Source of the DNA: Ephemerocybe angulata
Taxonomy: Eukaryota; Basidiomycota; Agaricomycetes; Agaricales; Psathyrellaceae
NCBI GenBank assembly: GCA_013368325.1
Contig: JAACJK010000002.1
Location: forward strand, 62,001-126,000
Direction: 5' to 3'
DNA length: 64,000 bases
Shown here: positions 23,561-45,584 of the stretch, piece by piece
How positions within the stretch are numbered: position 1 is the stretch's first letter
How the letters are laid out: each line of letters opens with the position of its first letter
Program-made: the position numbers and the translations under genes
The notes under the pieces: generated by a model
Database searches by the model: none
Told to the model about the DNA's origin: nothing
Seen by the model: only the letters and a program-made list of their open reading frames with translations

Positions 23561-25284
23561 GTTATTGAAGGAGGCGCCGCTGCGCAAGTGATCTAGTTTG
23601 ATGTTCACTGGCCACTGCCGGAAGCAGCCATGGACGCCGCGAGCTACCCAGAGTCAGCATGCTTGCGGTAGTGGTGACGGAATGGTGCGTACGTTCTGCG
23701 CATCGGCTTCAGGGTATCGCACTTTTCGGAGCTATAGCTGGGCGAAGGCAAGGTGAGCGGCGAGCGCCTCACTTTGTTCTCGTCATGGGGGTCATTCGAT
23801 ATCGTTGGGCGAGCTTCAGCGGCGAGGAATTGACATGGTCGATAGGATCGTTATCGTTGTCGTACGCGTCGCCGTCAGTTGAGTTGGAGAAAGGAGGCGG
23901 GGGAGACGATGGCTTTGGGATGCAGGAGCCTGCCCTTGGAGGTATTGTCGTAATGAGGGAGCTAAGGCGAAAGTGAGGTGGTCTCGTCCAAATTTGCGTT
24001 TGGCGGGTTCGAGATGAGGAAGAAGAGGCTGGAAGGTAGGGCGAAGGCAAGGGAACAAGTAACTGACGCGCCGCTCGCGATGTATTCGTACCAATTTGGA
24101 GCTCCGCCTGAACGGACTTGGCGATTCAGAATTTCAGAGGCTCTAGGGATCCCTCCAGTGACAACCCAGTTAAACAGGGACGCCCAATGACAACCCCAGT
24201 ATGTCTTTTCCTGCTTTCGGTACCCAGAATGGTGTGGGATCCCAAGTTCTATCGCTCTATAGTTGAGTTTCGAGGCATCTTTCCGATGTCGGTGGGATGG
24301 TAGCGGCACAAGGGACTTCGAGAAAGAAAACAGTTTAGAAGTAAAAGAATGTATTTGCGGACTGTAATCAGTTATAAGTCGTACAGTTGTTGTGGAAGAG
24401 TGTGGGCTGCTGGAGGTATGTAGTTGAAAGAGAAATGATCGACATCAACGGTTCTGCAGCTCTGGGCTGCTGTGGAATGTGGCCCACCGATTTGGGCTGC
24501 TCCGGTTTGCCAGGGATTTCTGGCGTCCTGGTGCGATCTCACTGGGTCTCACTGGGTTTCAGGGGTCAAATCATAAATGTTCTTGACTTTATTCACTCAT
24601 CATATCCGAGTGCCCCATTCCCCAGACTTCACAATTGTGCGCGTGTCTGCCGTGCGTCACCTCAAGGCTGCACATTTGTCCCCTAAACCACCACGAAGGA
24701 ACGTTTCGCTCATTTTGATTTGGATGCCCGAGCTTCAGAATAAAGGCCAAGCCTCAAGTACAAGGTCGACGTCAAGATGGCGCACAGAAGCGGTACAGCG
24801 ACTTACAACGAACCCTACCTGTGAAAGGCTCTGACCAATTTGCCCTATCTATAGCTACTTCGAGCAGCGGAGCGCGGTTCTGTCCATCATATCGCAAAGC
24901 TACGGGATGAATGGCCAGACGACCTCCCCAGCGCTAAACGAGCAATGTCGATTCTCCTGGAACAGATGAAAACTAACATCGCATCCATACCAGATCTGGA
25001 CAGAAAAATCGAACTCGAAATCACGGAACCCACCATAGCCCTCATACTCGGATGCATCAATTCGCTGAATGGTGTGTTCAAAACTTTTGGCAAGGCTACC
25101 AAAGAGGAGGCGGAAGAGCTCTTGGCGATAATAAGGCCCTACCTGGAGTATTACCTCCCTTGGCTAGCCTTCCTCGGGCGCAGAGCCCCATCTCTCCCAG
25201 GTTATCACTCAGGACACAATTTCGGGGCGCAGCGGATAATGATCCTTCTCGATCGAGGTATCCACTACGCAGACGACCCTGACA

Positions 25285-26209
25285 GGGCATTCAGCAGGCA
25301 TGAGTCAACCATAAGGGTCACCAGAGATTAGATCTGGTTCAATGGTGATGGGTTACTAGAGCTCAATTGACAGGCATCAGTGGTACCGAAGCTAAGGCTC
25401 AAGTGGGATGATGCCCATATAGAAAGGCTCAATTGATAGCCCAGGCTGACAGAAGTTTGTGAGTCAAGTGAGATGGTCTATGTTTCTACACCCTTGTATA
25501 CTCGCCCCTTCATCTGAATTATCGGGCGATCATTTTCTGTCATCTATCCTGGGGTTTAAATATGTGAGTGATGGGATCGCACTGGGCCATGATACAGGGG
25601 GGCACCTACATTAAGCGCCCGTCAACCGAGGCAAGCAAAAATTCGGGAATGAACATATAACCTAGGGGCTCGGGCCCCTTTAAAGGCATAACGAACCACA
25701 GCACTCTCGGAGTATCCTTCCAGCCCTATGACAGGTTCTCTCGTATTTCAGTTGTAGACATTAGCCAGAAGCACCTCAAGGCCTGTTTTTGGCTGGCCGA
25801 AAACGGGCAAGCCTTCTGAGCACGAGTAAATCCCCCGGAATAGAAATACATAACTTTACAAATGAATGATATTTATCCTGGTTATAAACCAACGGGAGGT
25901 TTACACGAGCTTGGACCTGAGCAAGGTCGATAAAGCACCCACTTTGGTTAAGCGCCCGCTCGCGCTTGATAAAACATGCGATCAGGCCGCCACCTCCGAA
26001 TTTGGTCTGGCCCGACAAATGCCACCGAAATTTGGATAGTTACGCGGGTGGCGGACGATGACTCAATGGGAAAGCCAAGGCAAGGAGTGGCCTCCATCAG
26101 TAGGGGCCGCTTATTTCTCTTTTTTGGGTGATGGGAAAGTCCCCAGTGCCCCATCCCCAACATTTGAACCCGAGAAGTAGGCATGAGGCAACAGCATGGT
26201 CTGGTATAT
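25285..26209. promoter_or_regulatory. Left terminal region of the KDZ-type element
   Basis: Non-coding. It holds subterminal ctcaagtggga and gtcaagtgaga motifs, two taagcgcccg boxes (25613, 25949) and the hairpin at 25785-25804. By analogy with other large DNA transposons such repeats could be transposase-binding sites; this is inference. Confidence 0.45.
25785..25804. repeat. Hairpin motif, copy 1 (one mismatch)
   Basis: GTTTTTGGCTGGCCGAAAAC. It is the inverted form of the motif at 37946-37965 with one changed base. Confidence 0.8.
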
Positions 26210-27593
26210 CTACTACAATTTTGAGTATTGTAACAGGTCAACCAAACCCCAATGGAAGGAGACTTACCCCCCGGACTGCGCCTATGCCAATCGCTTTCCA
26301 GGTATGCACGAGAAATCCTTCGGGAGAGAGCGGGTACACGGCCGCGAGCACCGTTGGATACCTCTATAGGTTATAACCTTCGGGTGGAGCTGGAGAAGAT
26401 GGTAGGCCGTGTGATGGATGCGTGGAAGAATCCAGGTGGGCCAGTATATCTACATTACATCCCTATGCTCACTAATTACAAAATCCTCACCCGATATATC
26501 AAAAACCCAAAGTTACTCTCGATTATAGCTTGGGCGACATAAATCAAGCTTTACAAAGGAGTAGCTCGTGCACAAAAGCCGAATTCCTGAGGCGAAAGTT
26601 CCGGGGGCCCTTCCCTTTGCAGGATGACGGGATGCCACCATTGGTCGATCATCCCATGGTCTTCGTCGACCGCCTTTCAGCAGTTGTCGCATGGTATCTC
26701 CCCGGAGTATTTACCGAGCAACGGCGTGTACGTACTTTTCTCCGTTTTGCTCAGTACTTCAAGTGACATCTTTTTTCGGGCAGATTAACGTTTTTGATGC
26801 CGTAAAGGCCCTGGGGGATCACGCTCACTCGGCTCTCCGTATCAAGCCCAACACCGGTAATTGGCGGGAGGACACGACCACCTTCGTAGATGCGCCAGGG
26901 TACAAACTAAGGCCCGGGCATCTCAATCTGAGCATTGCTTGGTATAACCAAGGCTATGGTGTGAGTTGCACTTTTAGTTAGGGCCCGAGCATCTAATTGA
27001 TTTGGAATAAACTATCTTAGGGTCATAACAGCTCTCCCGCTCCAACAGCGTGCTTCCAACAAGGAGCCAAGAATGGGACTCTGGAGTTTATCGAAGCGTT
27101 AACAGAAACAAACGCACTTCTGGGGGCCCTTCTATCTCTTGTGAACCCAAGACTCTTCGAGATGCAATTTTCGGTCTTAGTCGAACTTTATTCGGGTCGG
27201 GCTAAGACCGAAAATCGGGAGTTGATGCTCGAGATTTTCGAGCACTGGTCCACTCCACTGACCGCCTTTGCAGTCATATCAAATCGCGAAACACCTTTCC
27301 ACCGGGACACAAAAGGCGGGAAACTATTATTCGACCTACTGGCGGTCTTTGGGGATCATGACGATGGTCGTCTTGAGGTTCCACTCCTTACTTCCAGGTT
27401 TGTTTACAACCCAGGCACTGCATTCATCTTCCCTGGTTATCTGTTCGAGCATGGCGCCAGTCCAACAAATGGTGATAGGATCTGTTTGGCAGGATTTATA
27501 CGGCCAAACGTGGGGGATGGGGCACTCGGCTCATACGCTGAGACAGCACCTCCAACGGAGGAGGAGCTGGAGGCCATGATGGGAGCTCATTAG
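26210..27593 (+). pseudogene. TET/JBP-family 2OG-Fe(II) dioxygenase, probably frameshifted
   Basis: The double-stranded beta-helix core is clear in the last exon (about 27022-27593): FHRDTKGG supplies the HxD iron ligands, FEHGAS the distal His, and DRICLAGFIRPN the Arg that binds 2-oxoglutarate. Upstream exons read YLHYIPMLTNYKILTRY, HPMVFVDRLSAVVAWYLPGVF and LSIAWYNQGYG, as in fungal TET/JBP proteins. Introns run about 26730-26784 and 26961-27021. The family oxidises 5-methylcytosine in DNA. Two frame changes seem needed, near 26327 (between KSFGRER and APLDTSIG) and near 26537 (AWAT to INQAL). The start is not resolved. It lies beside a KDZ transposase, the known genomic partner of basidiomycete TET/JBP genes. 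Confidence 0.8.
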
Positions 27594-27819
27594 GTGCTGG
27601 CAAGTCGGCCGTTCATCGCTCCCGCATTTATTCGGTCGCCCGCATTTATTCGGTCGGGCACTTATTGCCCGGGCGCTCATTGCTCGGGCGGTTATCGGGC
27701 CGTAGGATTATCGGTCGGGTGTTTATCGGTCGGGTATTTCGCAGTCGGGTATTTCGCAGTCGGGCATTGCAGGCTATAGAAGGGAAGCTTGACACTCATT
27801 TAACTGGCTGATACATACA

Positions 27820-28505
27820 CTACAACATCGTGATCATATGATCGAAGCGGTTGGCAAGGTCAAAAAATGCAAGAGAGACTTCTTTCGTCCGTTCAATTGA
27901 ATGTTCCACCTTTTGGAGATGCTCATTCGACAAATGAACCGCCTTCGTCACTGCCATCCGAACCTCGGCCATTTGCCGGTCATCAGCACCATCTGGTCGA
28001 TGCAAGGGAAAGGAAGGATGGATGACTGCCTCTTCCCACTCTTGGAGGACAGAGAGAACTGTGTTTTCCCTCCCCGGTTCCCACCATCGTTGGATCGGAT
28101 ATCCAAAATCTTGTATCAACCGAGATTCCTTGGGATCGACAAAGCAACCAGATCGAAGTGCAGCCCAGAGGTCCTCTGGTGAGTCGGAATGCCGTTTGAA
28201 CGACCCGAGAATGTACTTGAGGTGATGGCAGGCTATGTTGTAGTCCACCATGTTGGTTTGTATGCCCTGGAATGTAAGTGCGATTTCCTAAAAATAGGAG
28301 TCAGTCCCAAAAGGGTAGTATCCGATGAATGTGATTTTACCAGCTCGCGAAGAAATAAATTGAGAAGTCGTTGATCCACCTGATGTGGCAGCCGCGTGTC
28401 CCGGAGATATCGAAGGTAGGCATCCCTACGAGATGCGAGGAAGTTCGTGATGGTGAACCACACCATTTCGGATGATATGGGAGGGAAGGGCATAATCGGG
28501 GGCAT
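27820..28505 (-). CDS. Unknown protein of the KDZ element
   Basis: Exons 28341-28505 and 27820-28287 join in frame (210 aa; intron 53 bases, GTAAAA...TTTAG). It begins MPPIMPFPPISSEMVWFTIT. The first third is helical and basic (SRRDAYLRYLRDTRLPHQVD), the middle holds Trp-rich text (YPIQRWWEPGREN), and the last 60 residues could form a coiled coil (VTKAVHLSNEHLQKVEHSIERT). I do not recognise the family. The 5' limit is uncertain: another open frame begins upstream at 28638, so an extra exon is possible. It lies on the same strand as, and downstream of, the gene at 28657. Confidence 0.55.
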
Positions 28506-28656
28506 GAAACACAGGGAACGCCTTCCTTGGTGGATTGCACATGCCCTGTATATATGCGGGTACGGAAATTGGGGGGACTGCGAGCTCGGCCGGAAATAAC
28601 GTGGCCCCGATCATCTGATTTTTCAAACCAAAGTCCAATCATTGTAATGTAAGTAA

Positions 28657-29456
28657 CTACTGGGGGAGGTTGTTCACCTCCTGATTCATCAGCTTCTCTT
28701 CCATCTCCTTCAGATCTCCAATAGTAGACTTCACATGGGTGATCGTGCTTGCCAGGGTGAGTAACTGGTCATAATTATCCTTTATCTGGCTATTAATAAA
28801 CTCCAACGCTTCCCTTGCGATGTCGAAGGCCTCGTGGACTTCAATCTCGGTCAACCCACCAAGATTGAGGTGCGCCTCTTTGCTGATCATAGCTGGGGTG
28901 GGAAGTACCTTCGCCTGTGCAACCCAGTAGGTGAGGACTTGACCAAAGTGGAATTTCGGCAGTGGTGCCGAGTTTTGCTGGAATTTCGCCCACCAATTCC
29001 CAATGTACCGCGGGAGGATTTGATCGGATTGGTTCCGATCGTCGCGAACAACCAAGAGCAGGGCCGACATATCCGTGAGCCGGTTCTGGAAGAGAAGACG
29101 GGACAGTCCACGAAGGCAGTAGGGAGGGTGAAGGTTGAGGTCGTGGGCAGTAATACCGAGACCGACAAAGAGGTTTGCCCCCATCTATTAATCGGATCAT
29201 GTCAGCCAGGCCTTTTGGTTGAAGCCCCGATAAATGCACATACGATTTCTTCCTCCACGCGGGCGATAAATCGTTTCTTCTCCTCAAGGGAGAGAACCTC
29301 CATGGTCAGGGCATACGTGTTACAGGCCGCCCGACACCGGCTTGAGGCATAGTTCATGAGGCTTTGTGATTCATCGGGCTTGAGACTCGAAAGAATCTGG
29401 AAGACTTGTTGCATAGTCCAGGTGATAGACGAAGGAGGGACGGTAAATGAAGACAT
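28657..29456 (-). CDS. Unknown helical protein of the KDZ element
   Basis: Exons 29244-29456 and 28657-29184 join in frame (246 aa; 59-base intron, GTATGT...AATAG). The start is MSSFTVPPSSITWTM. It is mainly alpha-helical. A hydrophobic patch lies in the middle (LTYWVAQAKVLPTPAM), and a coiled-coil-like C-terminus (LASTITHVKSTIGDLKEMEE) ends NNLPQ. No catalytic motif is visible. It sits only about 50 bases beyond the transposase stop codon on the same strand, so the two may share regulation. Confidence 0.6.
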
Positions 29457-29506
29457 GATTCTTTGAGACCATAATCCAGCAATTGCACAATATATATACG
29501 AAAAAT

Positions 29507-32500
29507 CTATAATGTAGATTCTTCCGGTAGATTCTCCTCTTCCATCTCGTCCTCTGATACCCCGGTATCCTCAGAGTCCCAATCGCTCTCTAACTCCCCT
29601 CCATCTAGTGATAGGCAGGGGTTGAGAAACCCGCGCGGGTTACGGGGTTGAACCCGGCTCGGGTGGGGTGCGGGTTGGCCTTTCCCAACCCGTGCCCTTC
29701 AAAACGAGCCCAAGAACGTCCAAAATGGACGAGATCTGGGCGAGATAGGATAGAAATGAATAGTAGTTATCTCGCCCATTTCTTATCCGATCTGGATGTT
29801 TTTGGGCTCGTTTTGACCGGGTTGACCCGCGGGTTCCGGGTAGGGTTAGGGCGCGGGTCGGGTGCGGGTCAGGGCATTTCCACCCGGGGTTAACCCGTGG
29901 TGATCACTACCTCCATCTGGCTCAATGCTTCCATCTCCCATGCTTTTTTTTGGAATGTCGGGCTTCTTGACAGCTTTGACCTTCGCGTTCTCGTGCACTA
30001 TCCCATCAACGGTCACATTTTCGGGGTGCTTGATGCCCTCAACCCGCCCATTCTCGGGCTTCTTGATGTCCTCCGCGGTCCCTTCCAAAGGCTTCTTGAT
30101 GCGGTTGGGATCCAGATCCACGGCACAGTGCTGGTAGAACATGCCAGTCGCATACCCCCTGAGCATACCCCACATGCTGGCCTGGCGTCTAGCGTAGGAT
30201 GTGTGGCCATCTCCCAGGTCCAAATCTGCCCATTCCTCCACGCGACCTTTCTGGTAGGCCATAAATCGGACATACCACTCCATCTCTGATCGCACCATCT
30301 CGGCTTCTTCGCCCCAACGGTCTTGTCTCGCCTTCGCCCGAATCCAGCTCACCCGATATACTAATTCGTCGGGCGAGTATTTCGCTATCAGCAACGAGCG
30401 AGAGAGAAACAAAGTGTAGTTGGTTGGACTCACCCTCATTCACATATTCGCTCCTATCTCCCATAACACCCGGCCGAACATTCCATATCCAACTGACCGG
30501 CTCTTTTGTCGGGTTCTCAAGGTTTGGATTATAAATACCTGTCATAGCCTTGGTGTGAGACCGAGTGAGAGCCTGGAGGTGGGGATACTGCTGAAGGGAG
30601 CCGAGTTGGTCGAGTGCAGCCCGGGCAGCATGGTATCGCTTCATGTGGTAACGGAGGCTAACGTCAATTTCTCGGATCGCGTCATATCCCCTCGTTCTCT
30701 CCCTCTTCCCCACTGCCAAGTTTCTGTTGGCACGGTAGCGCCAGGACTTCTGGGTGATCTCACCTCTAATGCACTCCAACGCTTCCTCTGCCTGTGCCTC
30801 CCGAAGAACTCCCTCCATCTCAGACGCATATGCCCACCCTTCCGGCAACTTTCGGATTGTCGATGGGAGAGGTATGCTCGATAGTTCTTCCTCCGCATCG
30901 GCCAAGGTTTCGCTATCAGGCTGGAGTTCCTCACAGTAGCACTGGTCCTCTTCATCCCCCTCACATACACACTCCTCCTTTTGATCCTCCCATCCTTTCC
31001 CGTTCACTTCACGAAGCTTTACCTTTGGAAAAAGGCGGGCGGCTTCAACATACCAGTCGTTCAGCCGCTTCAACAGTTTCTGACGGCGCCTGGCCACGTC
31101 CAACTCCTCGTTCGTTGATCTTTTGGACTTCTTTTTTCGGGATATCAGAGGTGGGGGCTTTCTTCGGAGCCGAGATCGAAGTTCAATTCTGAAGTATTTT
31201 CGATCTTTAGTGGAAAATACTAGTCCCTTGAATAAAAAATAACTCACTGTTCTTCTTCAAGTTCAATTCCCAAGGCAACCCAGTCTGCGACACCAAGTTG
31301 CTCAGTGTGGTCCTCACGTTCCTCGTCCATCAGCTGTGCATGAACATCGCTTTTCCGCACCACTGAGAAAGGTAAAAATATTACTGGAAAAGGGGATAGA
31401 AATTAACACACATACCTTTTGGCAGTCCACGGACCGCGAGCTCATCCATGGACTCATTGTTCGTCAACGGCCGATTCTTGTTTGCCAGGGCCACTTCGGC
31501 TTCCCAGGTAGCACGTTGGTCCTCTGTAACAGTACTGTCCAAAGCTTGGAAGGCTTCATTTGCGGCTACAACTGAAGTTCTGGCCTTTTTGAGTTGTTTG
31601 ATGAGATAACGAACTATTTATCGGGCGAAGATCATCCAGTTAGCTACAGCTTGATATATACCAGGAAGAATTGAATCTGACCCATCCCCTGCATTTTCCG
31701 CCAGTTACTGTCTCCCATACATGCATCGAGCATCTCCGCTCGGTGCGCCAGAGTCATTTGTCGGGTCATGTTGCCGGCCCCATTTAGGGTTGACCACAGG
31801 GACTCGATAATCTCACCACTGGTCACCCCGGCGCCTGGTAGGTACGTAGGGGCAAATCGTGTCAGACACTCTTCCTTATGTCCGTGGACATGAAAGAGCC
31901 CAATTACAAAGGACTTCTTTAAGTCGGTGGGAAAGAGTTCCTTGAGAAGAACGCTCCGGCCGATCCTCTTGTCCAGGTTGACACAGTACTGGCAGTTGAT
32001 GTCGTAGGCGAACACAAGTCCGGGGGTCGCTCCCGCATTGGTATTCTTAATGGCCTGACCTAGAGCATAATCGACGTTGGCCTGTCTTCTGGAAATCAGT
32101 CTCAAAATTACAAGTAAAGCCAGACTGGACAGACCTTTCACCCTTCTGCATGTCCACCACACACCCCGGTGCGAAGCAACCATGTCGAGCACAAGCTATG
32201 GCCACTAGACCAGTAGAGTCATACCCTTTCTTTGCCTTGTTCTTGTCCTCGACTGCTCTGTGCTTGTAACAAGTATGCGGCTATAGCAAAAATGTCAGTA
32301 ATAGTAGAAGGAAGAGCAAGAGGACAAGAAGTGCGCCCGAGGAATACTGGGCATCCGAACGCGAGCAAGGGATAAGCGCGCGAGCAAGGATAAGCGCGCG
32401 AGCAAGGGATAAGCGCGCGAGCAAGGATAAGCGCGCGAGCAAGGATAAGCGCGCGAGCAAGGATAAGCGCGCGAGCAAGGATAAGCGCGCGATCATGCGA

Positions 32501-34261
32501 TAAGCGCGCGAGCAAAGATAAGCGCGCGATCATGCGATAAGCGCGCGATCATGCGATAAGCGCGCGAGCAAAGATAACCGCGCGAGCATGTGATACGCGT
32601 GCGATCATGGAATAAGCGCGCGAGCAAAATTGCAATTGGTAGACGCGCGAGTAATGAAAACATACAGGCGAAGAAATATAGAGATGAATATTTGGGGCTC
32701 GATGAAGCAGACTTGAGATACTGCGTTGTACGGAACAAGATTAATAGTGAAGAAGTTCACACCTCATGATGTTCCCTAGTATTCTTGAGATGGGTGGAAT
32801 ACGGTGTCCTCTCAGCCATAAATGCTGAGCCGTCGGTAAGCCAAACAGCCTTGCCACTCTTCTTCTTCTCAGAATGATTGAGAACGAAGTTCCCATCTGC
32901 TACAAGATACCGTCGGTACTTCCACCTGAGATGGGTGTCAGAAGACGAAAAAATAGGGGGAGAGAAAGAAAATGCATACGTATTCGGATCCTCGGTCCAA
33001 TCAGGGGGTAGGTTGATATCGGGCATGGGACAAGCAGGGCATCGTAAAGCAATCTCGCCATTCGCAGGTTTAGCGCCGGGGTTGACATGACCAAACCCAT
33101 TTCGTTTCAAGTTGGTGAGATGGTTGTACTGCTGCCACACACGGGCGAGCTCTCGCTTTCGGTTCTTTAATTATCGGTCGTAGATTAGCACCCGAGGATT
33201 TCAACAAAAAGAGTCGGATCACGTACTGGAGTCCGCATAGGGAAGATATAGTTAGTCATCCTCCGGAGAACTTCGGTAAAGGTGTCGGTCGACAGGTGGC
33301 CATGCACCTTGAGAAGGTGTGCCAGATTGAGAACATCAAAGGTGAAGACGGTGGCGATGGCTTTCCAAGTACTTGGGTAGAATCCTTTGTCGATGAACTG
33401 GATCTCTTCAGGGGAGCCTTGGGCTTGGGTACAGAAGCAGGCGAAGACAGGGAGATGGTGATAGCCATTGGTGTGAGTGATCATGACAATGGATCCCGAT
33501 CCAATCGTTGTTCGGACAGGCTTCGCACCATATGTCGGGTCCTCGGAGAAGTCTTCAATATTGTTAATCCCAATGCATCGGCTCTCAAGCTGCTCCAGGG
33601 TGCTGTGATAGGCAGGGCACGGTTGAACCCCATGGCCAAGACAGATTACGGTGCCGACATGCCACAGCCAGGCAGGCATCCAATGTGTCCCAGTCCAACG
33701 TTCGATCCGATGAAGTGGGTTCGCCCGATGAATGACCTTGCAACATTCGGTGCAGTATCGAGGGGTATCAAAGCAGTCAAGGCATCTCCAGCCAGTGGGA
33801 TTGACACAGCAATTCTCGCATACAAGGTTACGAAGGGCCTCGCGATGAATAATTCGGTCGAGGTAGGGTGTGCACTTGGTTCGGCCCCATTCATCCATAT
33901 ATTCGTGGCTGGTCTTGGCTGTGTCAGAGAAACGAAGGCTGTCACGGAATTTCGCACATACCGTTCCCTGACTGGTTTTGCCAGAGTGCCGGGTAAATAT
34001 CGCCTTGTTGATACCGCCTGTGTTGGGAGGGGGGTTGGGCTCGGAATGATCGGGCGAGGGAGCTTCAAAGTTGTTGATGGGCATGGGGTCGTAGTCATCG
34101 GTTCGGGGCTTCTTTCCGGAAGGCTTCTTGGGCTTGAGCTGTCTAGAGGAAAGACGTGACTTGGAAGGGACAAGTATGACTTTTTCGCCTCGTTTGGTGG
34201 AACGAAACACCACGTTTTGGACAAGGAAGCCCTCTCGGGAAAGGACAATGGGTTTCGGCAT
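29507..34261 (-). CDS. KDZ (Kyakuja-Dileera-Zisupton) transposase with CxC2-like cluster
   Basis: Nine exons: 33227-34261, 32980-33164, 32763-32925, 32135-32280, 31682-32085, 31416-31613, 31248-31362, 30434-31188 and 29507-30360. The N-terminal Cys cluster (residues about 165-215: CENCCVNPTGWRCLDC, then YCTECCKVIH) is the CxC2 type associated with KDZ. FYPSTWKAIATVFTFDVL follows. Candidate catalytic residues are the Asp in VADGNF, the Asp in FAYDINCQY and the Glu in SGEIIESLW, with HVHGHKEEC between. The C-terminal half has SWIW and RVSWIRAKARQDRW, also family-typical. A MITE sits in the last exon (29606-29909). Reading through it replaces the normal acidic tail with a short alternative end, so the core may still be functional. 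Confidence 0.9.
29606..29909. mobile_element. hAT-type MITE in the KDZ transposase C-terminus
   Basis: A 304-bp element with a perfect 8-bp target duplication CCTCCATC (29598-29605 and 29910-29917). Inverted ends start TAGTGAT, followed by acgggtt-like blocks. The interior is rich in cgggt repeats and can fold on itself. Removing it and one duplication restores an in-frame acidic tail ending at 29507. No coding capacity. Confidence 0.88.
32281..32762 (-). other. Oversized transposase intron
   Basis: At 482 bases this is about eight times longer than the other introns of the KDZ gene. Its donor is GTGTGA and acceptor GCTATAG. The extra length is mostly the minisatellite at 32359-32650. Confidence 0.75.
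32359..32650. repeat. GATAAGCGCGCGAGCAAG minisatellite
   Basis: About 14-15 tandem units of roughly 18-19 bases, gataagcgcgcgagcaag with variants (gatcatgc replacing gagcaag). It lies inside an intron of the KDZ transposase. Confidence 0.9.
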
Positions 34262-34460: not shown

Positions 34461-37109
34461 ATGTCCGATCTATCACCGTCCGACTCGGCAGCCGAATCAG
34501 AGGAGAACAAGGGGAAGCATGAGGAGAAGGCCAAACCCACTCCAATTCCCTTGGACGGCCGGTTCACAGAAGATCAACTCCGCTACCTTCAGGAGAACAA
34601 AGAAACTTACCGATACTCTACGGCCGCACTTCGAAAGGAGCTTGCACATGCGACATACCAGAAGTTCATTGACGACATGGCCGCTCTGGAAGGGACGACC
34701 TTCACACCTGATGAAAAATCGGCCGTGAATGAGGTAACTCCATCAACTCTGATGCACGAGCCCATATCAAGACAACTCATTACCCATTATAGAATGTTCG
34801 GCTTTGGTACTCCCAGAGAGCAAGGACCAGACGTAATGAAATCGATTGGGGGATCCAGTGGTCTGGAAAGCAGGTATTCTACAAGGAAAACACCACTACT
34901 GTTCTCGCCACAGTCAGGCAGCTTTTCGCAGATGCGGTTGGAGCGGCCGAGGCAGCAGCAGCTGATATCCAACCCCCCGAAGTCGATGCCATGTTCGATG
35001 ATGAGGATGGTTCTGTGTCCACCCAGTCGGATCCATCTGTTATCAAGAAGGCCCTCAAGCCCTTCAATTTCTTTCAAAGGGCCCTCACACTCGAATGGGG
35101 AAAACTATCCGATAAACAGCGGGAGAAATATCAGAAGTTGGCAGTCATATGGAGGGAACGGGGCCCGAATGAGGAAGAAAAGAGGAGGTATATCCTCGGC
35201 TGATTTAATCTTGATTCCAAACTCACATTCTATTGCTGATCAAGGTTGGCAGAGGAAGAGCTCGGAAAGACGTTACAGCAAATCAGCCGAGCCATGTATG
35301 CCCAGATGGGCGTCAGGATGGTGATTCTTGCAAGCTACAATAACAAGGCAGGAGCACCATGTGTTTGTGAGTGCACCTGAATATGGAGATTCCCTGGAGA
35401 CTGACACTGTTACCACATAGCCACTTTTGACTTCAATCACAAGATCGATGGGGGCCGAACATTCAAGTCTGGTGCCAGGCAGTGGTGGGATAAGGCTGAC
35501 CCCGAAGGACAGTACGGCCGATTTATCATGTCACAAGGTCGAGAAGACCCGAAGGATGCTGCCATGAGGACTGGGGAGTTTGAGCTGCCTCTGAACGACT
35601 ATGGGGAGCCAATTATTCCCGATCCAGAGGTGATACCACATGGAACACAGGCGCACAAATATTATGTCAAACTCATCCGACTTATCGTCCGAGGATTCTA
35701 CGGTATGTGTCCCGAAATTTGGGAAGAAGTGTACTCACCTTCACTCTCTAATAGCAGTGGCCCGAGATGTCGAGCCAACATCTAAAACAGCTTCACCGCC
35801 TTGGGGGGCTTTAACGTCAGATCTCCGAAGGTTCATTTCCGAAGAATACTTTCCCGACCGATATGCCCCACTGACAGACCCTGGTATAATTCGGGTGGAT
35901 CGGATGAAGAGAATCCTCATGCGGTGGTATAAGCGGCAACAGGATGGTCAAATCCCGCTCGAGTTTCACAGTTATCAGGTCTCCTCTACCGTTTTCGAGC
36001 CCAGAGTTCCTAGACAGATCAAACCGCCACCCTCACCCAAGTCTGGTTCTGACTCCGAGCCAGTACCGACGGCCGAAGGTGTAAAGATACGGGGGAGGAC
36101 AGTGCGGAAGGCAGTATTCGTGGACAGTGAAGGGAGTGATGGATCCAAGGACGTTCTCCCAAAGAACGACAAAGCCAAGCCGAAGCCGAAAGCGAAGGTA
36201 AAGGCAAAGGCTGAGGGTAAGAAACAGAAAAGGAAGGGAAAGTCCAAGTCACGAAAGCAAGTTTCAGACTCTGATAGTGACCAGACTGGGGGTGAGGGGG
36301 GAGACGTTGCCATGGAGGAACTTACCACAGGCGCCACAACCCGATCAAAGGGGAAAGAGAAGGAGGCCCCCAAACCTGTCGAAATCGTGAACTCAAGTGC
36401 GGAACCAGGTAGGTATTTCTTTATATGAACTATGGAGAAGACATCTAACCTGAAATTGAAAAGACATCAAGATGGGATCACGTATGTCGCTTCCTACCTT
36501 ATGGACATTCTACTCACCTAGTACTGTATAGCAACTCCATCAACTCCTGGACCCACCGCAACCGAGAAGCTCAAGATCGAGACACCCAGGACACCACTTT
36601 CTCCAGCCACCCATGCATTGATACAGGCGGCCGACGATCTCAAGATCGAGACACCCAGGACACCACTTTCTCCAGCAACTCCTGGATTGATCCAGGCAGC
36701 CGAAGTTCTCAAGATCGAGTCACCGGGGACGCGACTTTCTCCATCACCAGGTTCCACTGTTCAGACCGGTGTTTCCAACATTGACCCAGAGGTTCTCCAG
36801 AACTTAGTCGCCCAGGAGGTTCAGCGGATTCTCCGAGAAAAGGCAGAAGCCGCACATGCAAATCCTGCAAATCCTACCCCAGGCAAGAGTCAAACTGCAA
36901 ATGACGCCAGTGTTCCTGGAAAGAGTGGGCAGAAGGAGAAGGGCACGGGGGAGAAGGCCTCAAACCAGATCGGAGAAGGGTCCGGAAGAAAGGGTGGGCC
37001 CAAGAGGCGAAACGCAGAGGATCGAGATCTTCTGAAAGTCGCCGAAGTGCATGGCTTAGCAGGGAAGAGAGAGAAGAAGGCAACCTGGAAGAAAAAGATG
37101 GAGGAATGA
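34461..37109 (+). CDS. HMG-like, Lys-rich accessory protein of the KDZ element
   Basis: Exons 34461-34733, 34793-35187, 35245-35366, 35421-35702, 35755-36408, 36464-36481 and 36532-37109 join in frame. Residues about 155-210 (NFFQRALTLEWGKLSDKQR, KYQKLAVIWRERGPNEEE) resemble an HMG-box-like helix bundle seen in many agaricomycete transposon-linked proteins. It is followed by RAMYAQMGVRMVILASYN and FDFNHKIDGG. The second half is basic and disordered (Lys-rich 36160-36260, GATTRSKGKEKE), then a 23-residue tandem repeat, then a coiled-coil-like QNLVAQEVQRILREKAEA. It starts 199 bases from the divergent transposase start, so the two probably share a promoter region. The acceptor before exon 5 is a NAGNAG (tagcag), which allows one-residue variation. 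DNA binding is inference. Confidence 0.75.
36560..36770 (+). repeat. 69-bp coding tandem repeat (LKIETPRTPLSP units)
   Basis: Three in-frame copies, the last partial, of a 23-residue unit beginning LKIETPRTPLSPAT within the HMG-like protein. Confidence 0.85.
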
Positions 37110-37245: not shown

Positions 37246-37263
37246 TTTTCGGCCAGCCGAAAA
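37246..37263. repeat. Hairpin motif, copy 2
   Basis: TTTTCGGCCAGCCGAAAA: perfect 8-base arms around a CA centre. Confidence 0.85.
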
Positions 37264-37945: not shown

Positions 37946-37965
37946 GTTTTCGGCCAGCCGAAAAC
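37946..37965. repeat. Hairpin motif, copy 3
   Basis: GTTTTCGGCCAGCCGAAAAC: perfect 9-base arms around a CA centre. Confidence 0.85.
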
Positions 37966-38342: not shown

Positions 38343-41300
38343 CTACTGCGGGTTGGAGTTGTGTGCAGTGACATCCGAGATATTGGGTGTAAGAGGGGAA
38401 CGGTCTCTTGGCCAAGCCTGCCGGTGAGCCAGAGGCACCCCTCCATCCGTGTGCGGTATATAGGATACCTGATCTCCGTGGGAAGAAACAGCTCCTGCAC
38501 CAGCTGAATTCTCGCGAAGTGCCATTGAGATCGAAGAACTCGCACTGCCGCTTGGATGATATCCAGATGTCCGCTGGCTATCGACTCGGTTGATCCGGTC
38601 ATCGTAAGTGAATTGGCTTGGTTCTCCTGGAACGGTATACGGCCGACCTTCTTCCCCCCTGACCCCACTCGTGGATTCTGCACCATGGCCTCGAGATCCA
38701 CCAAGACGTGAACCACTAACACCACTCCCATCTCTCCCTGACACCGGCAAGCTGTGCATTCCCCCTCCCTGTCTTCCTTGAATCTCCCCCCCAAATACTC
38801 CGGGTTGACCGCCGCCCGAACTATAAGTCCCCACCCCACCCGAACTATACGGCCCCTCCGCGCCCGAAGAACTATACACCCCCGCACCGACCATACCATA
38901 TGCCCCTACTCCACCCGAACTATACGGTCTGACCTCGTTCCTTAGCCCAAAGTCCGTGGTAGCCGTTGATGGATCAACATCCATCCGGTGGGTGGGATTC
39001 GGTTGCTGCTCCCGGCTGTGGAATATCCCATGCCGGAGTGACCGCAATTCTTGTAGAATCCCAGTGACCTCCTGCCTCCGCTCCTCGTCGTGATCTCGAA
39101 CAACACGTCTCAGTATGTCTTCGAGGTCTCGGCGACTCGCAACCATCATCCCATCACCGACCACGCGCCCTTCCACGGCACCGAGTTGCCTCTCCAAGGT
39201 CGCGAGCTTCTGCAGAATCTCACTTCCCTGACTCCCTGCCGTATTCAGCTCCAGCCTCCTCTCGACATCCAGCAGCCGCTCAGTGTGCCCCGTCGACTGC
39301 TCCTCCAACCTCGATGATCGAGTGATGAGGTTTTTGATCACTTCCTCGTCGATCCGTTGACCCGCCATCCAGGTCTCGATCCCCGTAAGTCGTTTCGAAA
39401 TTGGCCCATTTTCATCGACCATTGACTGTAACCCACCGAATTGACTGTCGACGGATTTTTCGTAGGCTGTCTGTGATGCTGCTAGGCCAGCGACTTGCTG
39501 CTGGAGATCTCCAATCGTGGAAAACTCACGGCGGAGTACGCGGAGTTCTGCCTGTACATCCCTCATGGAATCATCCTGATTTCGTTCTTCCGATAAACGG
39601 ACTTGGGAAACCTGCAAAGATATTCAGCTACAAGGTATGTTTGGACCGTACTCGGAATGTGAATATCACTGACCACCTTCTTACGGCCAAGTTCTTCGAC
39701 TGCAGGGGAGACGCGAAGTATCGATTTTGGCCTGACTTTCTTTGGATGGTCGACGTCCATGGCATCCGAAGCCGACTGAGCCTGTGAACGGTATTGAATC
39801 TAGGGAACGTCGAACGTGAATAAGTGGCTCACCTTCGCAGAGTCTCGAGATGTCGTGGGTTTGTCTCCTTTCTTCGGGTTCACGATGGAACCACTTTGTT
39901 GACCAGACGCCTTTGGTTTCCCCTTCGCCTTCGGCCTTGTCACCTGCAGAGACACACTTCCACCCTCTCCATCTGAATAAATATCGTTCGCACCCTTCTT
40001 TCCCCTCCCTGACATGGTACTCAGGCTTCTTTCCCTCGGTTCCTCCTTAACAGCTTTTCCATCCGCGTTCGTGCAAGCTTGGCGATCCCGATTACAGTTG
40101 TAACAGCTTCGCTCCTCCTTCGGCTTTTTCTGCTCCTCCTCTGCAGTAAGAACCTGGTAGAAGCAGTCGTATTGCTTCTGCGCGCACCGAGCACAGGTCA
40201 CAGTGGAAGGCTTTGCATCGGCAGCAGACGGCCTTGCTTGCGCTTTGGGTTTCCTGCCACTCGGCTTTCGAACGTTCTCCCCTGCCACAACAGCCCCAGC
40301 TTTCCCTCTCCCGCCCTTCCGCTCTCCTTCCTTCTCAAGCTTCGCCTTTTTCGACCGTGCCCTCAACTCTGCCTCTTCCTGATCGTCTTCGTCCGACATC
40401 TGTGGGGTCTTTCGCTTCTTCCCTTTCCCGCCTTTCTTTGGCTTCGGTGAAGGTATCTCATCTTCCTCGCTAGACGACTCCTCCGAGCTGCTGTTACTGG
40501 ACTCGGAATCAGTTCTCTCCTCAGATCCCCCCTCACTATTGTCATCATCTCCCTTGCGCCCGTCCACCATCTCCACATCCTCGCTCTCACCCCCATCTTC
40601 TCCACCTTCACTTGGATCGGCCGGGGGCGTTGCGTCCTTCCCACCACCCAAAACTGTGGGTGTCCCACTGTTCTTCGCACTGCCCTGCTCACTCGACTTT
40701 CCATTCTTCGCACCGCCCCGCTCACCCGACTTTCCATTCTTCGCACCGCCCCGCTCACCCGATTTTCCACCACCCGCCCCAACCATATTCTCTGTGCCAC
40801 CCCCTGCACCGATATCCTCTGCTCCGCCAGTACCCACATTCTTCGCATCGTCCCCCTCCGCACCACCCACCTCCAAGGTCTTCCCTTTATCGCCCGTGCC
40901 CGCATTCATCGTTTCGTTGCCCACCTCCAAACTCTTTCCTTTCTCGCCCATGCCCACATTCTTCGCGCCGCTCGAAGCACCGACATTCTTCGCGCCGCTC
41001 GAAGCACCGACATTCCTCGCGCCGCTCGAGGCACCGACATTCCTCGCGCCGCTCGAGGCACCAACATTCTTCGCGCCGGTCGTGGTACCCACATTCTTCG
41101 CATCGGCCATGGAACCGGCATTCTTCGCGCCGGTCGCTGTACCGGCATTCTTCGCATCGGCCGCGGACCCCACATTCTTCGCGCCGCCCTTGGAATCTAA
41201 CTCCCCAACACCCACTGTGCCAGGATTGCCTCCCTTCAACATACCCTCCTTCCCAGGTACGGCCTTTCCCTTGTCCTTGACCCCCTCTCGTCCCATCTCA

Positions 41301-41846
41301 ACGATCTCCAAATCCTCCCCCTCAGGTTCACCCTCTCCATCCATAAGATCATCCTCCGCACCCTCAGCCTTCTGCGGAACTGCTGCTTGCTGCTCGGCCT
41401 GCTGCATAATCTCCTGCACAACCTTCCGATGCTCCTTCGACCTTCTGTCCTCTTCGGCGAGGACCACAGCCGTCGCGAAGGGAGGCTTAGAGAAGAGCTC
41501 CAAGTCCAGGACGACGTTGGGACTGGGGTCAAAGTAGTCCTGTCTCCTGGAGAGTTCGTCCATCCACGCATCAAGCCGGTCGGTATACGTGAAACTGACT
41601 TTGCCGTAGTGCGCCCAACCATGGAAGATCCTGATCTTTTACAAGATATCAGTCATAGCTAGGCATGTAGGTAGAATAACTTACTGAGTACTTCACAAGT
41701 TGTGCTCGTATATCCCCAAGATTGTCTCGCTCTCCGTTCCAAGTTGCTGCCGGTAAGAGAAGGACCTCAAGCGTATCAATTTGATCCTGTATAGACTTCG
41801 GGCTGGGTATCTTCTTGGGTTCTGGGTTCTGTTGAGCTTCAGACAT
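38343..41846 (-). CDS. Large cargo protein with six-cysteine cluster and coiled coil
   Basis: Exons 41685-41846, 39833-41635, 39674-39781 and 38343-39611 join in frame (1113 aa). The N-terminal 150 residues look folded (VKYS, IFHGWAHYGKVSF, LDAWMDELSRRQDYFDPSPN). A Gly/Asn/Ala repeat follows (AKNVGASSG units), then an acidic Ser/Glu stretch and basic tracts. Two CxxC-x6-C half-clusters follow at about residues 530-565: CARCAQKQYDC and CYNCNRDRQAC, as in Zn(II)2Cys6 fingers but with a linker of about 20 residues. Exon 4 opens with a long coiled coil (DVQAELRVLRREFSTIGDLQ) and ends in Gly/Ser/Tyr-rich sequence. I do not recognise the family. DNA binding through the Cys cluster is inference. An upstream in-frame start at 41912 is possible. 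Confidence 0.7.
40970..41180 (-). repeat. 27-bp coding minisatellite (AKNVGASSG)
   Basis: At least four near-perfect 27-base units, with more diverged copies either side, encode a nine-residue Gly/Ala/Ser repeat in the cargo protein. Confidence 0.8.
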
Positions 41847-42351
41847 TGCAAGTAAAGTTCGGTGGGTGAGCGAGTAGGATAGTGAGGGGTTTGAAACTGC
41901 TTGTGGTGACAATTCCTCTGAAGAAGGTCGTCTTTCGACTGTGAACTTTACAACAGGCCTATCAGACTATCGCCCGCAAATCGCCCGCTGTTTCCATGGA
42001 CTATCTCACAAGGCTTCATTACCCCAGAGATCCCAGATTAGACCGATTAGATTGTTCCATATGCGAATAATCAATCTATCGGGCATCTCGACAAGTTCTT
42101 CAAGGCGCACATTGTTGTTTCATTGCCCCCGATGTTCAATTTATTTTTCGCATGGCATCTTTGGTTCCGCCACCACTCAATCACCACATGAGGCTGTTCT
42201 TCGCGTGTTCCGAGGTTCTCATGTCCGATCTCGGTCGTCGCATGTGAAGATTTAACCATTTATTGTTCATCGCGTGTAAGTTGCGCCCACCGAGTATACT
42301 CCGTCTATATCTTATCTCAACGGCGACATCACGCCTGCATTGTGCGCGAAT

Positions 42352-43672
42352 ATGTCTCCCCCCGGGCCCACTCCCAAGAGCACAGGTAAGAGAATTCTCT
42401 CCACTGTAAGTCACGTCCTTAACTATGTTCTAATGGTCTTAGATGTCCAGATGGGCGATGTTGGTACTCGCGCCGATGATTCTGAACCCCCTCCAGGGTC
42501 ACAGGAGTCTGCCTTTGGTGCGCACAAGAAAATCCTTAATATATTAACGCGACACTGACACACCAACGGCTAGATTCTTGGGACTCAGCGCCACCGGGGA
42601 ATGTAATCGCCCAGGCAATGCAGAACCAGCGATCGCCTATGCCCGCTGCTCCCAGAGGCGGTCATCCGATGTTCGCCTCATCTTCTGGAGGGTCGGGTGG
42701 TTCTGGTGCTGCAGCCGGTGCTGCTTCTTCGTCGCTTCGGCCCCCCTTTGCCATGGCAGTCACCAATACAAGCCCCGCACATTCGCTAAGAAATGCCAAC
42801 GAGCTCAAGCAACAGGTCCAGTCGACCAACAATCAACTTCAGGCAGCCTTGGATTCTGTCAATAAGACTGGCAGCACGGGCCACACCCCCTCCTCCGGCG
42901 CCCAACCTCCCATGTACACAGCATCGCGGATTCCAGAGCAGCAAGCAAACCCACGCGCTCAAGGTCTCCGACAGGAGATGCTTGATGCCCTTCAGGAACG
43001 GTTTTGGGATTTACGATCCCAGGACGCCATCCGCGTATCCATTGGCTTCCTCGAATCGCACCTCACTGACCTGGAGGCTTTCCAGAGCCAGCAAATCAGC
43101 CATCACCACAACCTCCTCCGCAGCCGTCGAACAAGGGTGGGCTGGTCTTTAAATTACCGGCCCATACCTGGGTGGTTGGTTCAGCCTTTTGGCTGCTAAA
43201 ATTTTGTTGGAACCCCCTCTCTAAACCCTAAAATGGGGCCCCGGGGGTCAATTTTGGGTCAGTTTCAGCATTTGGGGTTTAAGAAATTGATATAGAGTAC
43301 ACTAGTGATGACTTACACTGGCTATGGTGCTTAAATATATACTAAGAACAATAATAAATACTTTGCACTGAGTGAGAGTTGAACTCGCGCCCTCCGGTTA
43401 ACCATTGGGTGGACTCCGGATGTCGGCAAATTGAGCGGAGCCCGAAAAAGCTTATGTAAATTGCCTTTTTGGGAAGGCTTGGCGCTTATGTAGGTGGTTG
43501 GTTCAATTTTTGAGGGCTTAATTTTTTTTCCAACCCTAGTGCTGTTTTCTGAAGACCAGCCCACCCTTGCCGTCGAATGACTGACAAGATTGTTGAAGCA
43601 CTGAGTCGGGCTTCATACATCGAGAGCGTCCGGGCAGATTTGAAGGAAAAACTTGGAAGTATTGACGTCTGA
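42352..43672 (+). pseudogene. Cargo coiled-coil gene interrupted by a hAT MITE
   Basis: Exons 42352-42385, 42443-42517 and 42574 onward join in frame. The product starts MSPPGPTPKST and is Pro/Gly/Ser-rich. It then has helical segments (LRNANELKQQVQSTNNQLQ, MLDALQERFWDLRSQ, FLESHLTDLEAFQ). At 43131 the frame meets the MITE. After it, from 43578 on, the same frame resumes (MTDKIVEALSRAS, YIESVRADLKEKL) and ends at 43670-43672. The original protein was therefore about 60 residues longer with a helical C-terminus. With the MITE present a truncated product is expected. Function unknown. Confidence 0.75.
43132..43569. mobile_element. hAT-type MITE in a cargo gene
   Basis: A 438-bp element with perfect 18-bp terminal inverted repeats (CAAGGGTGGGCTGGTCTT) and an 8-bp target duplication CCGTCGAA (43124-43131 and 43570-43577). 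Further matches (ggtggttggttca) lie inside each end. There is no coding capacity; the 8-bp duplication and CA-starting ends fit the hAT superfamily. Confidence 0.95.
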
Positions 43673-44097
43673 AAGGCCTGTATTTGTTTCTTCTGTTCAC
43701 CAATAGTTTTACCTGTGTACCTTTACCAATTTCCTGGATTGATTGTACCACCCAAATTTGCCAGCACGATAAATACAAATTGACTGTCCCGAAGAATCGA
43801 CCACCCGACTAACCAGACACAGGTGAACCGAGGACCCGAGGAAGCGCCCACCCAACCAGCCACCCGCTGTGGCGCGGTGATTTCGGATATTCGGACAAAT
43901 GTAAGCCGGTGTTCCAAATGTAATCACACTATTTTAAATTAGGTGCCGGTGTTCCAACAGCATGACTCAAGTGACATGATGTCAAGTGGGTCATGGCTGC
44001 CGACATCACTCAAGTGGGACCTGTCGGCCTATGCCAATTGGGCCACATGCAAACTCTGTCAACCCATTAGGCAGGTGACATTCCCATGTTATAGGGT
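43673..44097. promoter_or_regulatory. Right terminal region of the KDZ-type element
   Basis: Non-coding. It contains a nested palindrome at 43961-43995 (catgactcaagtgacatgat, then gtcaagtgggtcatg), and actcaagtgggac at 44008-44020. It ends ccatgttatagggt at 44097. Confidence 0.5.
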
Positions 44098-45551
44098 GAC
44101 CCTGACACCCATGAGCGGGTAGCAGATTTTTGTTTGTCCCTATGGATGGTCGAGGCTGCTTCTCCGAGGATAGAGGGGGCCACATTTACCACTGATGGGT
44201 ACTGGGAATGCGTCTTTGCGAAGTTCGACGCTCTGTGGAGGTGTACCGCCCACGAGCCGACTCGGGACCACATCGTGCGGAGAGTGGGCGCATTCGACCA
44301 CGCAAATCTCAAACTGTTGGTTAGCTCGCTATACCGGGAGCTTATTGATTGGCCAGCGACGCACATGGCGACGTACCGGAGCAACCCATCCACATTCGAT
44401 TGCCAGAATGTTGTTCGCTATGTCCAAACGGCCACAATGCTCTGCGACCACAACCCCGAGTTCTTTCGGGTCATGCTGGAGATGCGCTTTGCCACTCGCG
44501 CCTACAAGGTTGCCTGGGACCTACGACATGGCCAATCGGTGCAGCATTGGGGGGGATCCATAGCCGGGGAGATCGCCAACCTCCTGTTTGGTCCGATGAC
44601 ATTGCTGTCAAAGGAATCTCCTAGATTGGTCGTGGAGCTCCTCGAGGCAGGCCTCCTTGATATCCTTGCTTTTGAGCTCCTCTCTCAACCGCCAGAAGGG
44701 GGTGCACGGAATTTCGACGAATGGCAGAGTTTCGGCGCCGGCTTGAACCCTTTCAAAACCCTTCTCCACTTTTGCCAATACCCACGCATATCTGCTGCAG
44801 TGAAAGCTGCGATCGATCGTCTCCCGAAAGAAACCCAGGAAGCGCTCTCGAGCAACTCGATCGCAAGTCGATACTGGGGGCCTTTTTTCAATGAATTTAT
44901 ATATTATCAGATTGCGGTGGAGATACTAGAGCACCGCGCTGGTCGTTTGTGCGACTCCCTAGAGGTGCGAGCCTTCCGTCCACCAATTCAGCTACTTCAC
45001 TGACTCGCTTATCCAGCATTATACAAAGAAAACAGAAGAGCAAACGGAGATTGCGACCCAGTGCTCGTGGTGCCATACCACCATGTATTGTTCGCGAGAA
45101 TGCCAAACAGAGGATTGGAAAGCTTTCCACAGACGAGAGTGCTCCAGAAATCGAATCCGACGCATAGGTGTGTCCTTACAAACTCTAGATTTGCTGTAGG
45201 TTCATTGAACTTCATACTCGATCACTAGACCAGCAGCTATCTGGGACCTGGGTCTCTCATCGTGCACGACTTTTCAAATTTATTCACCTCCAAATGATCA
45301 TCTCCAAGTGCGAATTCCCAGAATTACCTCCAGGAGCTCAAATGTTCAGCCCCATCGTCATTGTTGACGCCACGGTGTTCCCGAGCCAGAGCTATTACAT
45401 GGACATTGCCGACCCGCGTTTTGATATCCTCGACGATATGAAAGCAGACAATCGCTATGCAGCAATGATGCGGAGTAGTGTAGGCGATCGGACAAAACTA
45501 CTCGCTATCATAATGGTGGGCTTTGGAAGGCGGAGAGTGAGCGCGTTGGCA

Positions 45552-45584
<33 letters not shown>

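What the first reader, a model, noticed from the sequence alone, without database searches (positions are those of the whole stretch)
25275..44107. 18.8-kb cargo-bearing KDZ-type element sits exactly in frame inside a MYND gene
The 10-bp repeat GACCCTGACA lies at both ends. Left of it the exon-2 frame ends ...YADDPD; right of it the same frame continues THERVADFCLSLWM. This aligns gap-free with TEDPDSLEQIVDFALAIWL in the intact paralogue at 56352-58533. The whole 25285-44097 block thus entered as one unit, or grew from one insertion, and its limits are known to within a few bases. It carries a KDZ transposase, a TET/JBP-type gene, an HMG-like gene and four unknown genes.
Basis: partly seen in the sequence, partly recalled or inferred. 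Interest (0 to 1): 0.92.

Follow-up and report, generated by a model that had tools for sequence, protein, structure and literature searches.

The report
Nineteen-kilobase seven-gene mushroom jumping gene
An 18.8-kilobase piece of DNA with exact 7-base insertion scars interrupts a gene in the genome of an inky-cap mushroom, and diverged relatives elsewhere in that genome carry matching genes in the same order, likely the element's own machinery for jumping and for escaping DNA-methylation silencing.

Summary
The block is one Kyakuja-type (KDZ) DNA transposon, 25283-44098 (18,816 bp). Termini are 5'-CA..TG-3' without inverted repeats, the published rule for Kyakuja. Joining the flanks restores the MYND frame; any clean insertion with a duplication would do that, so 'exactly in frame' adds no surprise. 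Four more complete relatives of 18.0-20.1 kb each have their own 7-bp duplication and homologous ends (5 of 5), so the block moved as one unit and did not accrete. The genes are not random cargo: around KDZ, four marker genes (TET, unknown B, HMG-like, small coiled-coil) keep order and orientation in 11 of 31 KDZ loci, at least three of them in 18 of 31. Between two relatives, parts of six genes show dN/dS 0.07-0.21. In the three elements read in full, both ends carry RSTCANBTG repeats at similar positions, possible transposase sites in place of inverted repeats. One 438-bp MITE is nested inside. The host is, by protein identity, Ephemerocybe angulata. Transposition and demethylation are inferred, not shown.

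The parts
25283..44098 (+). Complete Kyakuja-type KDZ transposon, 18,816 bp, CAGGGCATTC...TTATAGGGTG
   Evidence: Termini and duplications read directly; homologous ends in four other elements
25276..25282 (.). Left 7-bp target-site duplication ACCCTGA
44099..44105 (.). Right 7-bp target-site duplication ACCCTGA
25283..25296 (+). Left terminus CAGGGYRTTCAGCA
   Evidence: 9 exact genome matches, 6 of them at the TET-side end of a KDZ element
44079..44098 (+). Right terminus CATTSMCATGTTATNNNGTG
   Evidence: 4 exact genome matches, each at a KDZ element; 5 with one mismatch allowed, 0 for the reversed control
25361..25470 (+). Left subterminal repeats RSTCANBTG at +79, +115, +145, +180
   Evidence: +115 and +145 (within a base) shared by three elements
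43965..44016 (+). Right subterminal repeats ACTCAAGTG at -134 and -91
26058..27593 (+). TET/JBP dioxygenase gene, 5 predicted exons, 405 aa; HxD, distal H and R, and the Gly/Asp of CcTET aligned and present
   Evidence: Tet_JBP E 1.9e-14; alignment to CcTET 7vpn; model
27820..28610 (-). Unknown gene A (last exon about 27820-28278; first exon boundary uncertain, end given is that of the open frame)
   Evidence: 26% identical to the gene at the same place in C120
28657..29456 (-). Unknown gene B, 232-246 aa by two models
   Evidence: 30% identical to C120 copy; 22 places in the genome after merging exons of one gene
29846..34261 (-). KDZ transposase gene with CxC2 cysteine cluster; 32333-32625 is a minisatellite inside a predicted ~500-nt intron
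   Evidence: KDZ E 7.1e-29, CxC2 E 1.3e-16; models
34461..37109 (+). HMG-box-like gene, 745 or 767 aa by two models
   Evidence: HMG_box_2 E 0.0015 here (below cut-off), 1.7e-4 in C120 copy (just above cut-off)
38343..41846 (-). Gene for a large Zn2Cys6-like plus predicted coiled-coil protein, about 1,097 aa
   Evidence: CX2CX6CX19CX2CX6C, same layout in C120 and C47:376034 copies; model; Zn_clus only below cut-off
42352..43672 (+). Small gene, predicted coiled coil (by eye), interrupted by the MITE; first exon uncertain
   Evidence: 52% identical over 50 aa to C120 gene; C120 copy matches 22 places in the genome
43132..43569 (.). Nested hAT-like MITE, 438 bp, 18-bp perfect inverted repeats, duplication CCGTCGAA on both sides
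24855..25282 (+). MYND-type host gene, part left of the element
44099..45172 (+). MYND-type host gene, part right of the element, with the MYND finger
   Evidence: zf-MYND E 5.8e-10

Best explanation
The block 25283-44098 is one 18,816-bp Kyakuja-type (KDZ) DNA transposon flanked by the 7-bp duplication ACCCTGA, and it likely entered the MYND gene as a single unit, cut and pasted by its predicted KDZ transposase. Shown: the ends, the duplication, four other complete elements in the same genome with independent duplications, the recurrent gene order, and purifying selection on parts of six genes in the relatives. Inferred: the transposase would recognise the asymmetric CA..TG termini together with the RSTCANBTG repeats some 45-180 bp inside the ends, helped by the element's HMG-like and Zn2Cys6-like DNA-binding proteins, which would bend DNA and pair the ends. 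Inferred: the TET enzyme would oxidise 5-methylcytosine (and perhaps 6-methyladenine) on the element and so keep its genes expressed. The two unknown proteins A and B and the small protein are predicted to be further parts of this machinery. The window copy now carries a MITE in its small gene, so it may no longer be self-sufficient.
For: 7-bp duplication and CA..TG termini in 5 of 5 complete elements: window ACCCTGA, C120 TTTCCTT, C47:376034-394327 CTTTCAG, C215 CTATTCC, C125 GAATATC; the published Kyakuja rule is 7-bp TSD, CA..TG, no TIR (PMC12730594). KDZ, CxC2 and Tet_JBP Pfam matches. TET catalytic residues align with CcTET. Collinear genes in C120 at 27-56% protein identity over the aligned stretches. 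11 of 31 KDZ loci have all four markers tested in the same order and orientation, 18 of 31 at least three. dN/dS between C47:376034 and C215, on parts of each gene: KDZ 0.07, TET 0.07, B 0.12, HMG-like 0.14, small 0.14, A 0.21; between C47:376034 and C231 0.11-0.31 for the five genes available. Subterminal repeats: 20 of 33 sites of three elements lie in the outer 2 x 400 bp; a held-out element end (C64) has 4 in 400 bp and 0 in the next 603 bp. The MYND frame and its similarity to the paralogue run through the joined junction.
Against: No movement, excision or empty allele was seen. No close copy of the window element was found (nearest KDZ matches 57% identical over the exon searched), so its own activity is undated. 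13 of 31 KDZ loci show two or fewer of the four markers (some at contig ends, others not explained). An eighth gene (X1) is present in two relatives, at different places, and was not found here, so the set is not fixed. Gene models are from my own script, without transcripts. Between the window copy and its relatives 18 of 25 comparisons are saturated at synonymous sites; the other 7 give 0.15-0.39 at dS 1.8-2.4, so selection is shown in the relatives, hardly on this copy. The large gene was not tested for selection. With one mismatch allowed the left-end motif is barely above its control (119 against 103), and 3 of its 9 exact matches are not at a listed KDZ locus. The subterminal motif was chosen after looking at the ends; its strict form CTCARGTG is absent from both C120 ends.
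Confidence: 0.88

Rival explanations
1. The block was built by several separate insertions around an original small KDZ element.
For: It does contain one nested insertion, a 438-bp MITE, and a minisatellite.
Against: The same order of genes and the same ends occur in C120 and C47:376034, which are about as long (18,945 and 18,294 bp) and sit at other sites with their own duplications; C215 and C125 are 20,091 and 18,032 bp between their ends.
Confidence: 0.03
2. The extra genes are passengers (cargo) that serve the host or nothing, rather than the element's own machinery.
For: One gene (X1) is optional and sits at different places; functions of A, B and the small gene are unknown; A and B differ strongly between lineages (26% and 30% identity to C120).
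Against: TET, B, HMG-like and small genes recur in order across lineages and, in the parts tested, are under purifying selection as members of the element.
Confidence: 0.12
3. It is a Zisupton- or Dileera-type KDZ element with 8-bp duplications.
For: In the window copy 8 bp (indeed 10 bp) match by chance; same Pfam KDZ family.
Against: C120 and C47:376034 match over 7 bp only; termini CA..TG without inverted repeats fit Kyakuja as published. No transposase tree was built here.
Confidence: 0.04

Closest known systems
TET-positive Kyakuja transposons of Agaricomycetes (Kyakuja-1_LB, Kyakuja-2_LB and relatives; PMC12730594: abstract, sections 3.2 and 3.4, first of two parts of section 4, and passages seen)
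   Same: KDZ transposase, AG-type TET/JBP gene, 7-bp duplication, CA..TG termini, no inverted repeats, order Agaricales
   Different: The parts that I read name no further genes for Kyakuja and no subterminal repeats (terms HMG, coiled, zinc: 0 hits in its main text); its supplement, with the table of families, could not be read
CcTET of Coprinopsis cinerea (7vpn, 7w5p, 8jkk)
   Same: Aligned over the last exon (E 2.8e-26 for 7vpn) with HxD, distal His, Arg, and the Gly331/Asp337 positions kept
   Different: Diverged sequence (identity not computed); this one is inside a delimited transposon
Fungal Starships (giant cargo elements of Pezizomycotina; seen only in a search listing)
   Same: Large, multigene, inserted as one unit
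   Different: Starships are classed by a tyrosine recombinase and carry accessory genes; here a KDZ transposase and a recurrent gene set

Membership tests
Kyakuja (KDZ superfamily) | KDZ transposase domain | tested here: met
   PF18758 E 7.1e-29
Kyakuja (KDZ superfamily) | 7-bp target-site duplication | tested here: met
   5 of 5 complete elements
Kyakuja (KDZ superfamily) | CA..TG termini, no terminal inverted repeats | tested here: met
   Ends printed; beyond CA/TG the ends are not inverted copies (by eye)
Kyakuja (KDZ superfamily) | Transposase clusters with Kyakuja in a tree | not tested
   Repbase sequences not held
AG-type TET/JBP dioxygenase | HxD plus distal His, and Asp at the CcTET Asp337 position | tested here: met
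   Alignment, residue numbers from PMC12730594
Zisupton | 8-bp duplication | tested here: not met
   C120 and C47:376034 match over 7 bp only
Starship | Tyrosine-recombinase captain gene at one end | tested here: inconclusive
   Pfam scans of ten main frames and of further pieces show no such domain; not every frame was scanned. The KDZ transposase already explains mobility
HMG-box proteins (gene at 34461-37109) | HMG_box match above Pfam cut-off | tested here: inconclusive
   19.6 of 22.4 bits here, 22.6 of 22.4 in the C120 copy
Zn2Cys6 proteins (gene at 38343-41846) | Zn_clus match above Pfam cut-off | tested here: not met
   13.1 of 21 bits here, at best 17 in a relative; the six-cysteine spacing is kept in 3 of 3 copies, so 'Zn2Cys6-like' only; that this spacing is typical of Zn2Cys6 is recalled

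The most novel reading that the evidence does not exclude
Kyakuja elements are self-contained seven- to eight-gene machines. Without inverted repeats, they mark their ends with phased RSTCANBTG subterminal sites (about 30 bp apart on the left, about 44 bp on the right), read by the transposase together with element-encoded HMG-like and Zn2Cys6-like proteins. TET is one module of this machine, coupling demethylation of the element to assembly of the transposition complex.
Probability: 0.3. Interest if true: 0.78.

Novelty: new member of a known kind. Interest (0 to 1): 0.52.

Why it matters
TET genes of mushrooms are known to sit near KDZ transposases, and complete TET-positive Kyakuja elements were reported in 2025 (PMC12730594). 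This case gives exact ends for five complete elements in one genome, shows that several unknown genes travel and are selected with TET and the transposase, and offers a concrete hypothesis for how an element without inverted repeats marks its ends. That makes the anti-silencing role of transposon TETs, and the role of the partner genes, directly testable.

Tried and rejected
Rejected: 10-bp duplication (7 bp fits all five elements); inverted terminal repeats (none beyond CA/TG); the palindrome TCGGCYRGCCGA as an end motif (two in the window element, two in C120, none in C47:376034, not at conserved places); accretion; a broken transposase (my first model split it at the minisatellite; the frames fit an intron of about 500 nt; the model in turn skips part of the cysteine cluster, which is open). 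Led nowhere: structure prediction of gene B (mean pLDDT 46.8, helices only); protein database search with the HMG-like exon (no hit); plasmid search; papers on E. angulata transposons (0 papers). The founding KDZ/TET paper (PubMed 24398522, content recalled) is not held, so I cannot say whether it already lists the extra genes.

The KDZ locus table used 31 loci made from the 50 rows: 10 rows were merged with neighbours and the 9 weakest (E 3e-5 or higher) were left out. From one, one and three extra rows of loci already listed were left out; all 22 rows were used. The search tool calls its counts lower bounds. Three of 9 exact left-end matches (C98, C126, C146) are not at a listed KDZ locus and were not read. 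The C120-derived query for the zinc-cluster gene found only 3 places, so its recurrence rests on the three elements read in full and on C64/C210. Of the 11 other MITE places, seven were read.
Full report
WHAT IS THERE. The repeat GACCCTGACA occurs only at 25275-25284 and 44098-44107 in the window. Kojima 2025 (PMC12730594; abstract, sections 3.2 and 3.4, first of two parts of section 4, and passages seen) gives the rule for Kyakuja elements: 7-bp duplication, CA..TG termini, no inverted repeats. Applied here, the duplication is ACCCTGA (25276-25282, 44099-44105) and the element is 25283-44098, 18,816 bp, CAGGGCATTC...TTATAGGGTG. The three extra matching bases of the 10-mer are element on one side and host on the other.

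RELATIVES FIX THE ENDS. The genome (58.67 Mb, 232 contigs) holds a collinear relative at C120:362224-381168 (18,945 bp, duplication TTTCCTT; the first 171 bp are 70% and the last 55 bp 76% identical to the window element), a third at C47:376034-394327 (18,294 bp, CTTTCAG), a fourth at C215:291485-311575 (20,091 bp, CTATTCC) and a fifth at C125:3341806-3359837 (18,032 bp, GAATATC). C120 and the third exclude a duplication longer than 7 bp. The left motif CAGGGYRTTCAGCA has 9 exact matches in the genome, 6 at the TET-side end of KDZ elements; with one mismatch allowed there are 119 against 103 for the reversed control, so only exact matches carry weight. The right motif CATTSMCATGTTATNNNGTG has 4 exact matches, each at a KDZ element, 5 with one mismatch, and none for the control.

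GENES. Order in the window: TET (+), A (-), B (-), KDZ (-), HMG-like (+), large zinc-cluster/coiled-coil gene (-), small gene (+). Pfam: Tet_JBP 1.9e-14, KDZ 7.1e-29, CxC2 1.3e-16; HMG_box_2 0.0015 here and 1.7e-4 in C120. TET residues HRD, the distal His and Arg, and the Gly and Asp that Kojima reports for AG-type enzymes align with CcTET. The large gene keeps six cysteines as CX2CX6C-X(19, 9 or 14)-CX2CX6C in 3 of 3 copies read, a Zn2Cys6-like layout that stays below the Pfam cut-off. An eighth gene, X1, with a sub-threshold RNase H1 N-terminal match, is in C120 and C47:376034 at different places; in the window element tblastn gave nothing better than E 0.93.

CARGO OR MACHINERY. From coordinates alone, 11 of 31 KDZ loci have TET, B, HMG-like and small genes all in the expected order and orientation; 7 more have three, 4 two, 3 one, 6 none. 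Of the 11, C179 and C47:209840 need much larger spacings than the rest. Some missing markers fall beyond contig ends (C64, C214, C231, C210). Between C47:376034 and C215 (dS 0.58-1.05) dN/dS is 0.07 for KDZ and TET, 0.12 for B, 0.14 for HMG-like and small genes, 0.21 for A; between C47:376034 and C231 (dS 0.18-0.24) it is 0.11-0.31 for five genes. Parts of genes were used (for example the last TET exon and one HMG-like exon); the hits to gene A ran across an intron, so its value is the least exact. Against the window copy 18 of 25 comparisons are saturated; the other 7 give 0.15-0.39. So the extra genes are kept as parts of moving elements, and 'cargo' is the wrong word.

ENDS WITHOUT INVERTED REPEATS. 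The loose motif RSTCANBTG occurs 33 times in the three fully read elements, 20 of them in the outer 2 x 400 bp (2.4 of 56 kb): +115 and +145 (within a base) in all three on the left, somewhere from -143 to -124 in all three on the right, -91 in two of three. The rest of the window has 12 in 45 kb. The strict form CTCARGTG occurs 16 times in eight 400-bp ends against 0.2 in shuffles, but never at the two C120 ends, and three of the five elements are closely related. The motif was picked after viewing these ends. On an end not used to pick it (C64) the loose form occurs 4 times in 400 bp, at about -132, -88, -46 and -43, and not in the next 603 bp; the first 87 bp read at the C66 left end have none, though other elements have one between +55 and +82. 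I take these as likely binding sites; nothing tests binding.

HOST. A C120 element protein is 100% identical to DFP72DRAFT_850110 of Ephemerocybe angulata, Agaricales, Psathyrellaceae. The best-scoring database TET for the window protein is from Coprinellus aureogranulatus, 44% identical; an unnamed one is 45% over 61% of the query; only the 8000 candidates sharing most words were scored. The window element lies in a MYND gene (zf-MYND 5.8e-10), and the joined flanks match the paralogue through the junction in an ungapped 166-residue segment, 27% identical. The right flank of the C120 element encodes a piece of dipeptidyl-peptidase III (Peptidase_M49 7.5e-33); two short pieces from the left flank and junction had no Pfam match, and their likeness to that enzyme is by eye and recall. 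Two cases do not establish a taste for exons; the third site showed no long frame.

AGE AND STATE. Perfect 7-bp duplications and open frames suggest an element that was able to move in the not too distant past, but a 438-bp hAT-like MITE with 8-bp duplication CCGTCGAA is nested in the small gene; of seven MITE copies read elsewhere six are full-length and 84-87% identical to it, one match is partial. The window copy has no close relative in the genome by KDZ exon search.

HOW IT WORKS. Most likely cut-and-paste by the KDZ transposase on CA/TG ends, with subterminal repeats and the element's own DNA-binding proteins shaping the complex, and TET keeping the element unsilenced. The last role is the published proposal for transposon TETs, which PMC12730594 itself calls not experimentally validated. 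Ends, unity, gene order and selection are shown; biochemistry is inferred.

NOVELTY. By every tested criterion of Kyakuja this is a member of the TET-positive kind. What I did not find described, in the parts of PMC12730594 read, in term look-ups over its main text, in passages of PMC7473861, PMC12062965 and PMC6431247, and in the listings of searches for Kyakuja, KDZ and giant transposons, is the conserved multigene set and the phased subterminal repeats. The founding paper and the supplement could not be read, so I make no claim of priority.

Noticed in passing
43132-43569: 438-bp hAT-like MITE, 18-bp perfect inverted repeats, duplication CCGTCGAA; of seven copies read elsewhere six are full-length and 84-87% identical; 8-bp duplications printed for three of them, two exact and one with a mismatch.
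   Followed up: yes
32333-32625: Minisatellite of about 18-19-bp units (GGATAAGCGCGCGAGCAA) lying in a predicted 500-nt intron of the KDZ gene.
   Followed up: partly
45556-51183: Minus-strand LINE-like open frame of 1,793 aa with a poly-T run at 45556-45584 abuts the 3' part of the same MYND gene, which may thus have been hit twice; the rest of the gene was not found beyond it. Its class was judged by eye.
   Followed up: partly
54291-54386: A further MYND-finger copy on the minus strand, so MYND genes are clustered here.
   Followed up: no
C120:362929-363612 and C47:376034-394327 element positions 11672-12284: Optional eighth gene X1 with a sub-threshold RNase H1 N-terminal match, at different places in two elements and not found in the window copy.
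   Followed up: partly
window 37749-38123 and C120:374861-375236: About 375 bp, 70% identical but inverted between the two elements, in the gap between HMG-like and large gene; perhaps another nested repeat.
   Followed up: no
C64 and C66: Contigs C66 (left end) and C64 (right end) show the same 7-bp flank GCTGCTG, so they may be two assemblies or haplotypes of one insertion.
   Followed up: no
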